From Streptomyces sp. B3I8 (GTDB lineage Bacteria; Actinomycetota; Actinomycetes; Streptomycetales; Streptomycetaceae), in the NCBI RefSeq assembly GCF_030816915.1, contig NZ_JAUSYN010000002.1, forward strand, positions 3,857,501 to 3,921,500: DNA of 64,000 nucleotides, in the 5' to 3' direction. The translations under genes were made by a program, and so were the position numbers. The number at the start of each line of letters is the position of its first letter. Within the stretch, counting starts at the first letter, position 1. The notes under the pieces are model-generated. The model searched no databases and was not told the DNA's origin. It saw only the letters and a list, made by a program, of their open reading frames with translations. Positions 37,345 to 39,349 of the stretch are shown here, piece by piece.

Positions 37345-38091
37345 CTAGTCCGTCGTCGGCTCCGTCCTCGCCTTCGGCTCCGTCAGGGCGGCGAGCTGTT
37401 CGTTCACGTACGCCTCCGTCGCCGCCTTGGTCAGCCCCAGGCCGCTCAGGACACCCCCGCCGTTCTCGTGTTCGAGCAGGGCGAGCAGCAGGTGTTCGGT
37501 GCCGATGTGGTTGTGGCCCAGGCGCAGCGCTTCCCTGAACGTCAGTTCGAGGGCCTTCTTGGCGCTCGGGGCGTACGGGATCAGTTCCGGGACCTCGTCC
37601 GCCGCCGGGGGCAGTGCCTCCTTCGCGGCCTCGCGGACGGTGTCCAGGGTGACCCCCTGCGCCACGATCGCCTTCGCCGCCAGGGCCTCGGGCTCGCTGA
37701 GCAGGCCCAGGACCAGGTGTTCGGGGGTGCCTTCCGGGTTGCGGGCGGCCTTGGCCGCGTCGTGCGCGGCCATGACGGCGCTCCGCGCGCGGGGGGTGTA
37801 GCGGCTGAACCCCTGGCTGGGGTCGAGGTCCGCGCCCTCCTTGGGCACGAAGCGCTTCTGCGCCGCCTGCCGGGTGACACCCATGCATCGGCCGATGTCC
37901 GTCCAGGACGCGCCGGACCGTCGTGCCTGGTCCACGAAGTGGCCGATCAGGTGGTCGGCCACCTGGTCCAGGTGCTCGGCGGCGAGCATCGCGTCCTGGA
38001 GCTGGTCGAGTGCGTCGGGGTGCATCTTCTTGATGGCCTCGATCAGGTCGTCGAGGCGTACGGACCGTGTGCCTGGTGAGTTCGACGTCAT
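37345..38091 (-). CDS. HTH plus double Clp_N domain protein, likely autoregulator
   Basis: A 248-residue protein. The N-terminal ~75 residues contain a helix-turn-helix (GASWTDIGRCMGVTRQAAQKRF). The rest is two Clp_N repeats (SRYTPRARSAVMAAHDAAKAARNPEGTPEHLVLGLL and IPYAPSAKKALELTFREALRLGHNHIGTEHLLLALL), the substrate/adaptor-binding module of ClpA/ClpC. There is no AAA+ domain. The family pairs DNA binding with a chaperone-type sensor; direct function is unproven. Two perfect TGTCAAC-N5-GTTGACA palindromes cover its own leaderless promoter, so autoregulation is likely. Confidence 0.9.
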   Translation of the reverse strand: MTSNSPGTRSVRLDDLIEAIKKMHPDALDQLQDAMLAAEHLDQVADHLIGHFVDQARRSGASWTDIGRCMGVTRQAAQKRFVPKEGADLDPSQGFSRYTPRARSAVMAAHDAAKAARNPEGTPEHLVLGLLSEPEALAAKAIVAQGVTLDTVREAAKEALPPAADEVPELIPYAPSAKKALELTFREALRLGHNHIGTEHLLLALLEHENGGGVLSGLGLTKAATEAYVNEQLAALTEPKARTEPTTD

Positions 38092-38092
38092 G

Positions 38093-38139
38093 TGTCAACC
38101 GTAAGTTGACAGTAGCCGGGTGTCAACCTGAAGTTGACA
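38093..38139. promoter_or_regulatory. Twin TGTCAAC-N5-GTTGACA operators and leaderless promoter
   Basis: Perfect palindromes lie at 38093-38111 (spacer CGTAA) and 38121-38139 (spacer CTGAA), 28 bases apart. On the minus strand the distal copy supplies TTGACA (38121-38126) as -35. Seventeen bases later TACGGT serves as -10, with the ATG of the Clp_N/HTH gene six to seven bases beyond. Both sites therefore occlude the promoter. The format resembles the RheA heat-shock operator TGTCATC-N5-GATGACA. The divergent DUF2786 gene starts 44 bases from the distal site. Confidence 0.88.
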
Positions 38140-38182
38140 TCTGTCGGGGCTCGCTGTCGGACCCCCGTGTCACGATCGAGGG

Positions 38183-39349
38183 GTGAGTACGCCGACCACC
38201 GTCGGGCGCGCCTTCGAGGCCGCCCTCTACGCCGAGACGGACGCCGCCCTCGACACCGGCGCGTCCCTGCTGGCCGCCGACCCGGCGGCCGACGCCGAGC
38301 TGACCCGGCGCGGCGAGGAGTTCGTCGCCGCGGCCTGGCGGCGCGGGTGGCAGCCCGCCGATGTCGTCCGGTACGTCCGCCGGGAGCTGGACGAGACGCA
38401 CGTACGGCTGGTGGCGGCGCTCATACGCGGCGAGGCGGGCCGGCGGCCGGCGCCCCACCCGCGCTGGGCCGCGCAGCTCGCCGAGGTGGCCGAAGCGGCC
38501 GGGCCGGACGGCTCCCCGCTCCCGCGCACCGACCGCTTCTCGCGGGCCACCGCCGTCCTGGAGCTGTACCGGCTGCTGCTCGGGCTGCCCGCCCTGGAGC
38601 CGCTGGATCCGCCGCGCAGGGCCGCCGTCTCCTCGTCGGACTCCCGGACGCTCGCCCGGATCCGCGCCCTGCTCGCCAAGGCCGAGGCGACCGGCTATCC
38701 GGAGGAGGCGGAGGCCCTCAGCGCCAAGGCGCAGGAGTTGATGGCCCGGCACAGCATCGACGAGGCCGTGCTCGCGGCCGGCGGCGGCACCGTGCGGGCG
38801 GGCGGCGCTGACGCGCCCGGGGCCTGCCGCATAGGGGTCGATCCGCCCTACGAGACGGCCAAGGCGGTCCTGCTGGACGCGGTCGCCGCCGCCAACCGCT
38901 GCCGCGCGGTGTGGCACGAGGAGTTCGGCTTCTCCACGGTCGTCGGCTTCGAGGCCGATCTGGAGGTGGTCGAGCTGCTGCACACTTCGCTGCTGGTCCA
39001 GGCCACGGCCGCCATGACCGCGGCGGAGGCGGCACAGCGCGCCGGCGGGCGGAAGCGTACGAAGACGTTCCGGCAGTCGTTCCTGGCCGCGTACGCGCAC
39101 CGCATGGGCGACCGGCTCGCGGCCACCGCGCGGGAGCAGACGGCCGAGGCGGCGGGGGAGGGGGGACGGGAACGGGATCTGCTGCCGGTTCTCGCGGCCA
39201 GGGACGTGGCGGTGACGGAGCACCTGGAACGCCTGTTCCCGAAGACCGTCACGACCCGCCTGCGCGGTGTCTCCGACGAGGCCGGCTGGCACCAGGGCAC
39301 GGCGGCGGCCGACCGGGCCCGGGTGGAGCGCCACCGCCCACTGCGCTGA
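38183..39349 (+). CDS. DUF2786-domain protein, function unknown
   Basis: A 388-residue protein. The DUF2786 core LARIRALLAKAEATGYPEEAEALSAKAQELMARHSID lies near residues 157-195. It is followed by a conserved C-terminal part with WHEEFGFSTVVGFEADLEVVELL and RTKTFRQSFLAAYAHRMGDRL. An N-terminal helical region (residues 1-140) is actinobacterial. DUF2786 proteins are often phage- or repair-associated but no activity is established. GTG 38183 has GAGGG just before it. It is divergent from the Clp_N/HTH gene and could share its operators. Confidence 0.85.
   Translation: MSTPTTVGRAFEAALYAETDAALDTGASLLAADPAADAELTRRGEEFVAAAWRRGWQPADVVRYVRRELDETHVRLVAALIRGEAGRRPAPHPRWAAQLAEVAEAAGPDGSPLPRTDRFSRATAVLELYRLLLGLPALEPLDPPRRAAVSSSDSRTLARIRALLAKAEATGYPEEAEALSAKAQELMARHSIDEAVLAAGGGTVRAGGADAPGACRIGVDPPYETAKAVLLDAVAAANRCRAVWHEEFGFSTVVGFEADLEVVELLHTSLLVQATAAMTAAEAAQRAGGRKRTKTFRQSFLAAYAHRMGDRLAATAREQTAEAAGEGGRERDLLPVLAARDVAVTEHLERLFPKTVTTRLRGVSDEAGWHQGTAAADRARVERHRPLR

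What the first reader, a model, noticed from the sequence alone, without database searches (positions are those of the whole stretch)
37345..39349. Clp_N-domain protein as a DNA-binding autoregulator with twin operators
A protein made of an HTH and two Clp_N repeats, without any ATPase, has two perfect TGTCAAC-N5-GTTGACA sites covering the -35 and -10 of its own leaderless promoter. The sites also face a divergent DUF2786 gene. Clp_N normally recruits adaptors or damaged proteins to ClpC, so the protein could sense protein damage or pArg-marked proteins and relieve repression. The site format resembles the RheA heat-shock operator.
Basis: partly seen in the sequence, partly recalled or inferred. 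Interest (0 to 1): 0.78.

Follow-up and report, generated by a model that had tools for sequence, protein, structure and literature searches.

The report
Streptomyces ClpC2-type decoy and self-repressor
The gene is a Streptomyces version of ClpC2, a known mycobacterial protein that blocks its own gene until a molecule binds its Clp-like domain; comparison with relatives suggests that its front helix-turn-helix, not the Clp-like part, reads the DNA, and that the same reading module is joined to other domains elsewhere.

Summary
Observation confirmed. Two exact TGTCAAC-N5-GTTGACA sites (38093-38111, 38121-38139) sit on the leaderless promoter of a 248-aa HTH + double Clp_N protein (37345-38091, minus strand). 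The system is published in mycobacteria: ClpC2 represses itself from such twin sites and is released by cyclomarin A (PMC10030653). This is a Streptomyces orthologue: 72 of 77 usable named loci keep both sites, 27-29 bp apart, the -10 inside the proximal dyad. Exact sites never exceed two per genome in 150 Streptomyces, so the regulon looks like clpC2 alone; the divergent DUF2786 gene was found only beside Streptomyces members. New here: the paper puts DNA contact in the Clp_N domain, but comparison points to the N-terminal HTH. Such sites also precede HTH genes without Clp_N: DUF3887 fusions 14 of 16, ClpX-zinc-finger fusions 26 of 28, against 18 of 4074 control ORFs, though only 3 of 13 DUF2812-like and 4 of 29 unclassified members. 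Residue 79 tracks the inner half-site base: Lys-C 155/155, Glu-G 24/24, Gln mixed (related sequences). Ligand binding in this organism is inferred.

The parts
37345..38091 (-). clpC2 orthologue, 248 aa: N-terminal dimerising HTH domain, linker, two Clp_N repeats, no ATPase
   Evidence: (9p2p ClpC2 E 6.8e-69; 8ad9 Mtb ClpC2 1.7e-40; 8ada Rv2667 N-term 6.4e-28)
37849..37905 (-). helix-turn-helix, residues 63-81 (recognition helix 74-81; Lys79)
   Evidence: model helices 63-70 and 74-81; most conserved stretch, mean entropy 0.36 bits over 61-82 against 1.36 over 93-235
37387..37815 (-). Clp_N double repeat, residues 93-235: likely ligand-binding (sensor/decoy) domain; cyclomarin contacts by alignment Q93, F95, Y173, E182
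38093..38111 (-). proximal operator TGTCAACTTACGGTTGACA, one base before ATG; contains the -10 TACGGT
38121..38139 (-). distal operator TGTCAACTTCAGGTTGACA; its right arm holds the -35 TTGACA
38098..38103 (-). -10 element TACGGT inside the proximal operator
   Evidence: sequence; TA at this place in 72 of 72 orthologues with both sites, 0 of 72 in the distal site
38121..38126 (-). -35 element TTGACA inside the distal operator, 17 nt before the -10
   Evidence: sequence; spacer 17 nt in 58, 18 nt in 13, 16 nt in 1 of 72
38183..39349 (+). divergent gene, DUF2786 + DUF7168, 388 aa from GTG; starts 91 bp from the clpC2 start

Best explanation
The gene is the Streptomyces orthologue of ClpC2. A homodimer formed by the N-terminal domain binds each palindrome with its HTH; two dimers on sites 28 bp apart cover -35 and -10 of the gene's own leaderless promoter and keep it nearly off (conserved layout shown here; repression shown only in mycobacteria). 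When a ligand that would otherwise occupy the ClpC1 N-domain (a cyclomarin-like peptide, possibly unfolded protein) binds the Clp_N domain, the dimer leaves the DNA and the gene is strongly expressed; the surplus ClpC2 soaks up the ligand and spares ClpC1 (inferred for this organism). The DNA is read by recognition helix 74-81, with Lys79 reading the innermost C:G of the half-site GTCAAC (inferred from covariation), not by the Clp_N domain as published; the Clp_N part is a swappable sensor.
For: Orthology. Conserved twin sites and embedded promoter: 72 of 77 usable named loci. Site and gene travel together: comparing by hand over the same 150 Streptomyces genomes (this one included), 104 of 123 with the gene have an exact site, 4 of 27 without it (one of these four is the operator of a paralogue, L175). 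Dimer salt bridge D46-R57 invariant in 44 of 44. Published function of the orthologue. HTH as reader: similar sites before 14 of 16 HTH-DUF3887, 26 of 28 ClpX-zinc-finger-HTH and 170 of 201 HTH-Clp_N genes, against 18 of 4074 control ORFs; residue 79 against inner base; five genomes at least 99% complete carry an HTH-DUF3887 gene with such a site but no HTH-Clp_N protein; crystal 8ADA stops at residue 72, just before the recognition helix.
Against: Taylor 2023 found that R185A/R189A in the Clp_N domain weakens operator binding, and those arginines are conserved here (R186 42/44, R190 41/44); the Clp_N domain may add contacts. Not every relative of the HTH has such a site: 3 of 13 DUF2812-like and 4 of 29 unclassified members only; a twin by the same rule is found in 119 of 201 Clp_N, 4 of 16 DUF3887 and 12 of 28 zinc-finger genes (controls 6 of 4074). 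A rule-free twin test beat shuffles clearly in 5 of 14 HTH-DUF3887 loci only. 19 of 123 Streptomyces genomes with the gene lack an exact site (some orthologues have GACAAC variants). One cyclomarin contact is Tyr here instead of Phe. The covariation counts related sequences many times. No model of the isolated N-terminal domain was obtained.
Confidence: 0.82

Rival explanations
1. The Clp_N domain itself is the DNA reader (its helix with R186/R190), and the N-terminal domain only dimerises, as proposed for Mtb ClpC2.
For: EMSA with R185A/R189A in PMC10030653; both arginines conserved here.
Against: Operators of the same format precede HTH genes that have no Clp_N, also in genomes where no match runs through both HTH and Clp_N; the half-site changes with the recognition helix; the first of the two arginines is also present in ClpC1 (recalled), which the paper found to bind with little sequence specificity.
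Confidence: 0.12
2. The main signal is protein damage: unfolded or pArg-marked protein occupies Clp_N and relieves repression.
For: Clp_N fold; a pArg-bound ClpC N-domain is solved (5hbn); heat raises clpC2 in mycobacteria; a 2026 paper describes unfolded protein drawing ClpC2 off its promoter (PMC12913811).
Against: Strongest measured inducer is cyclomarin A, 263-fold; ilamycin and ecumicin bind ClpC2 without inducing it; the arginine-kinase search found nothing but rang in no control genome either, so it is uninformative.
Confidence: 0.25
3. The twin operators also control the divergent DUF2786 gene as a two-gene regulon.
For: Start codons 91 bp apart; 26 of 48 rows (the window's own locus counted twice) are at 150 bp or less, so the DUF2786 promoter must lie near or over the operators.
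Against: Found beside 18 of 80 named loci, all Streptomyces (flanks of 3 kb); in 7 of 48 rows the starts are 739-921 bp apart, with a LysE-like gene between in four of the five of these that I looked at; no promoter matched on either strand.
Confidence: 0.25

Closest known systems
ClpC2 of Mycobacterium (Rv2667 / M. smegmatis ClpC2), PMC10030653
   Same: Domain order, length, N-terminal dimer residues D46/R57, double Clp_N, twin palindromes of the same consensus over -35/-10, leaderless start one to two bases after the proximal site
   Different: Outer base T instead of C in the operator; Tyr173 for the cyclomarin contact Phe172; divergent DUF2786 neighbour; ligand untested
RelI antitoxin of M. 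tuberculosis (PMC13284704, PDB 9SDC)
   Same: Same N-terminal HTH-like domain (profile hit 7e-16); the authors noted likeness to ClpC2
   Different: No sensor domain, binds a toxin; authors found no inverted repeats in the 1000 bp upstream and no evidence of DNA binding
ClpC1 N-terminal domain (3wdc, 6cn8 and others)
   Different: No HTH; belongs to an AAA+ unfoldase
RheA heat-shock repressor (recalled)
   Same: Palindrome with N5 spacer and TGTC start
   Different: Different half-site (TGTCATC, recalled); protein not compared

Membership tests
ClpC2 (actinobacterial HTH + Clp_N autorepressor) | N-terminal dimerisation/HTH domain plus double Clp_N, no ATPase | tested here: met
ClpC2 (actinobacterial HTH + Clp_N autorepressor) | Twin YGTCAAC-N5-GTTGACR sites over -35 and -10, proximal site 1-2 bp before the start codon | tested here: met
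ClpC2 (actinobacterial HTH + Clp_N autorepressor) | Dimer salt-bridge residues D46 and R57 | tested here: met
   44 of 44 rows of A1
ClpC2 (actinobacterial HTH + Clp_N autorepressor) | Cyclomarin-contact residues Q94, F96, F172, E181 of Mtb | tested here: inconclusive
   Q93, F95, Y173, E182 here: three of four the same; a ClpC1 F80Y mutant was still crystallised with cyclomarin (3wde title)
ClpC2 (actinobacterial HTH + Clp_N autorepressor) | Binds own operator and is released by cyclomarin A | not testable with these tools
   needs purified protein
RheA | RheA protein homology and hsp18 regulation | not tested
   operator format recalled only
pArg sensor (McsB/ClpC system) | Arginine kinase in the genome | tested here: inconclusive
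   PF00217 not found, but no control genome rang either

The most novel reading that the evidence does not exclude
ClpC2 is one branch of a larger actinobacterial regulator family in which one small HTH, reading YGT(C/A)A-type palindromes, single or twin, at its own promoter, is joined to exchangeable docking or ligand domains: the ClpC N-domain, the ClpX zinc-binding domain (125-aa ClpX-zinc-finger-HTH proteins), both together (L192), and DUF3887. The docking domains of the two Clp unfoldases would serve as decoy sensors that report and soak up whatever attacks or overloads that unfoldase, and residue 79 of the recognition helix would set the operator (Lys: C; Glu: G).
Probability: 0.5. Interest if true: 0.78.

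Novelty: new member of a known kind. Interest (0 to 1): 0.57.

Why it matters
The locus carries an autoregulated antibiotic decoy, known from mycobacteria, into Streptomyces, the genus from which cyclomarins and ilamycins come. The comparison challenges the published DNA-binding site of ClpC2 and makes it testable with fragments and one residue swap. If the ClpX zinc-finger branch works alike, it offers native sensors of ClpX ligands.

Tried and rejected
A wider regulon: exact YGTCAAC-N5-GTTGACR sites never exceed two per genome in 150 Streptomyces (the list of places was capped, and decayed sites are not counted). The 1-mismatch site in the own genome (L003) lies 28 bp before a frame of at least 490 codons, and the 2-mismatch site (L005) 39 bp before what reads like a MarR-type gene; neither was pursued. 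Of the three Streptomyces genomes with a lone exact site and no clpC2-type gene (G312, G398, G422) I looked at G312 and G422 only: the sites lie within long open frames, common at this G+C; three in 150 is no more than the reversed-pattern control (5 of 150).

A search of the protein database with the HTH part alone gave only Clp_N proteins among the 120 rows shown, so fusions were sought by genome searches instead.

Whole-model structure comparison showed Clp_N folds only (50 rows); it says nothing about the HTH part. The isolated N-terminal domain could not be modelled.

A rule-free test for twin palindromes before HTH-DUF3887 genes was beaten by at most 1 of 300 base shuffles in 5 of 14 loci (L189, L196, L197, L255, L259) and by 40 to 191 of 300 in the other nine; several of those nine have one site, not two.

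Papers: PDB codes 9p2p/9p39/9p4h led to no relevant paper; searches for ClpX zinc finger with HTH listed nothing on such proteins; searches on ClpC2 with Streptomyces or with other Clp-targeting peptides listed no work on this short Streptomyces ClpC2, by titles and abstracts; ClpC2 with HTH, operator, leaderless listed only the Taylor paper with the name ClpC2 among ten rows of 1,122. 'ClpC2' in the Streptomyces acyldepsipeptide papers is a full Clp-ATPase by the abstract, so the name clashes. The library is partial, which limits these statements.

In one search the pattern also caught GACACC/GACAGT-like matches that lie between the twin sites; therefore kept only half-sites starting GT, which drops L192 (GACAAC) and the GGCAAG arms of L182-L188.

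Full report
What is there. The minus-strand ORF 37345-38091 encodes 248 aa: a helical N-terminal domain, a short linker and two Clp_N repeats. The predicted model (mean pLDDT 91) shows helices 13-23, 27-58, 63-70 and 74-81, then the Clp_N part; 63-70/turn/74-81 is a classic HTH. Upstream, TGTCAAC-N5-GTTGACA occurs twice without mismatch, 28 bp apart, and nowhere else exactly in the genome. The proximal site ends one base before ATG and contains TACGGT; the distal site ends with TTGACA, 17 nt before it. A transcript starting at A of ATG would be leaderless. The generic promoter scan reports nothing.

It is ClpC2. The best solved-structure matches are ClpC2 chains: 9p2p (6.8e-69), 8ad9 and 8b9o, with 8ada for the N-terminal part. 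Taylor and co-workers (PMC10030653; I saw the outline, abstract, found passages, and sections 7 and 13) showed that mycobacterial ClpC2 represses itself, described CGTCAAC-n5-GTTGACG sites repeated over -35 and -10 with a likely leaderless start, and showed release by cyclomarin A, protection as a sponge, and milder induction by heat. A 2026 paper (PMC12913811, passages) adds that ilamycin and ecumicin bind ClpC2 without inducing it, and describes unfolded protein as another signal.

Conservation. One scan of named genomes returned 80 loci, the best 80 of 171. Of these 77 were usable (L061, L082, L083 dropped because my script found no full ORF); 72 of 77 have both sites with at most two mismatches. 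The five others are L017 and L042, whose distal site is perfect and proximal site decayed, and L063, L084, L085, of which the last two are distant Clp_N proteins. Spacing is 28 bp in 58, 29 in 13, 27 in 1. TA falls at the -10 position in 72 of 72 proximal and 0 of 72 distal sites, so operator and promoter are interlocked. Among 150 Streptomyces genomes 108 have an exact YGTCAAC-N5-GTTGACR site, never more than two, against 5 of 150 for the reversed pattern. Comparing that list by hand with the N-terminal search of the same 150 genomes (orthologue taken as E below 1e-20), 104 of 123 with the gene have an exact site and 4 of 27 without it; one of those four is the operator of a shorter paralogue in G357 (L175).

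DUF2786. The divergent gene was found beside clpC2 in 18 of the 80 named loci, all Streptomyces (some loci end at a contig edge), and in 25 of the 29 Streptomyces loci L146-L174, of which L146 is this genome. Start-to-start distance is 74-296 bp in 41 of 48 rows (this genome's locus is there twice) and 739-921 bp in 7. I looked at five of those seven: in L011, L015, L026 and L078 a frame that reads like a LysE exporter (by eye) lies between; for L019 the frame printed was another one. Control of DUF2786 by the operators is possible in short-gap species, not a general feature.

Which domain reads the DNA. Taylor and co-workers assign it to a helix of the Clp_N domain, from R185A/R189A. Their N-terminal crystal was proteolysed and ends at residue 72, by alignment just before the recognition helix. 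In 44 aligned orthologues and relatives the HTH (61-82) is the most conserved stretch: 0.36 bits mean entropy, against 0.60 for 28-60 and 1.36 for Clp_N. I then searched for proteins that share the HTH only.

HTH relatives and their sites. HTH-DUF3887 proteins without Clp_N: 12 of the 14 first examined have a YGT(A/C)AA(G/C)-type palindrome, 4 to 7 of 7 pairs matching, at -20 (L265 at -26) before the start (starts picked by hand, usually the first in frame; L263 and L264 have none). An 81-aa HTH-only protein (L333) has CGTCAAC twins at -46/-20. Proteins with a ClpX-type zinc finger followed by the HTH (125 aa; L309, L325, L336-L365; zinc finger by Pfam in the database listing of relatives) have CGTCAAG or YGTCAGG palindromes, one or two, at -20 to -61; some have a leader with a ribosome-binding-site-like stretch, so these are not all leaderless. 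Such proteins turned up in 34 of 296 genomes of the class, by my reading of the match ranges; most other matches of that call are ClpX itself. L192 has HTH, Clp_N and ClpX zinc finger with TGACAAC twins. A second HTH-Clp_N paralogue (L175-L180) has CGTCAAY sites, a third (L182-L188) TGTCAAG/AGGCAAG sites.

Counts and control. With one rule for all (both half-sites [CT]GT[AC][AT]NN, at least 4 of 6 equal, within 66 bp of any in-frame start, distinct proteins, classes by HMMs I built from these loci), a site precedes 170 of 201 HTH-Clp_N, 14 of 16 DUF3887, 26 of 28 zinc-finger, 0 of 1 Clp_N plus zinc finger (L192, whose sites start TGAC), 3 of 13 DUF2812-like and 4 of 29 unclassified proteins, against 18 of 4074 other ORFs of at least 100 aa in the same loci. 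Two sites 26-30 bp apart by this rule: 119, 4, 12, 0, 1 and 1, against 6 of 4074. A stricter rule fixed at -20/-21, with at most one mismatch to a degenerate consensus that I drew from the data, gave 150 of 202, 11 of 16, 2 of 2 (zinc-finger loci then held), 1 of 1, 1 of 13, 1 of 29 and 21 of 3926 controls. A rule-free twin test was clear in 5 of 14 DUF3887 loci only. The DUF2812-like and unclassified classes show that not every member of the HTH family is built this way.

Code. The residue corresponding to Lys79 follows the innermost base of the half-site, which the rule leaves free (majority base per protein): Lys with C in 155 of 155 proteins with a site (152 Clp_N, 3 DUF3887), Glu with G in 24 of 24 (all zinc-finger), Arg with C in 3 of 3, Gln mixed (10 C, 15 G, 7 T, 1 A); all half-sites of a protein agree in 150 of the 155 and in all 24. 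Proteins without a site were set aside: 22 Lys, 8 Glu, 9 Arg, 30 Gln. The rows are related, so the number of independent changes is small; Lys with C in two different fusions is the best sign that this is not only descent. Five genomes at least 99% complete (G676, G606, G678, G661, G518) carry an HTH-DUF3887 gene with such a site (L265, L258, L256, L257, L261; that of L261 is weak), and none of their matches to the window protein runs from the HTH through the Clp_N repeats (furthest 43-124); their strong Clp_N matches lie in frames of 843-1099 aa.

Judgement. I take the autorepressor as near certain by orthology, HTH reading as likely (about 0.85), and the antibiotic-decoy function in this Streptomyces as plausible (about 0.5): three of four cyclomarin contacts are kept, the fourth is Tyr for Phe, as in a ClpC1 mutant that was still crystallised with cyclomarin. 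The wider reading, that docking domains of ClpC and ClpX are reused as sensors on one HTH, rests on sequence and operators alone. The RelI paper (PMC13284704, passages) saw the HTH likeness and the DUF3887 and DUF2812 fusions; in those passages no operators of the fusions are given, and no evidence that RelI binds DNA was found. The listings held nothing on ClpX zinc-finger-HTH proteins as regulators.

Noticed in passing
L309, L325, L336-L365: 125-aa ClpX-type zinc finger plus C-terminal HTH proteins (1222 database proteins at E <= 1e-10; the 120 listed cover 87-100% of the query), many with YGTCAGG or CGTCAAG palindromes upstream.
   Followed up: partly
L192 938-1843: Protein with HTH, Clp_N and a ClpX zinc finger in one chain, with TGACAAC twin sites two bases before its start.
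   Followed up: partly
L190, L191, L193: HTH proteins without Clp_N (L190 and L193 have no Pfam match), preceded by TGTCATC-type palindromes 26 bp apart, close to the recalled RheA operator.
   Followed up: no
L007, L008, L016, L018, L026, L033, L089: A second palindrome, [CT]GTCCACA-N3-TGTGGACA, upstream of clpC2 on the DUF2786 side in several Streptomyces; not among the matches in this window.
   Followed up: no
L011, L015, L026, L078: A LysE-like exporter gene (by eye) lies between DUF2786 and clpC2, in the direction of clpC2, perhaps an older gene order.
   Followed up: no
L005 (G000:C2:4881897-4881915): Near-match CGTCAACAGCCTGTTGACC 39 bp before a MarR-like gene (by eye) in the same genome.
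   Followed up: partly
L194, L213: HTH-DUF2812-like genes with TGTCAAGG/CCTTGACG-type sites some hundreds of bases upstream of the likely start rather than at it.
   Followed up: no
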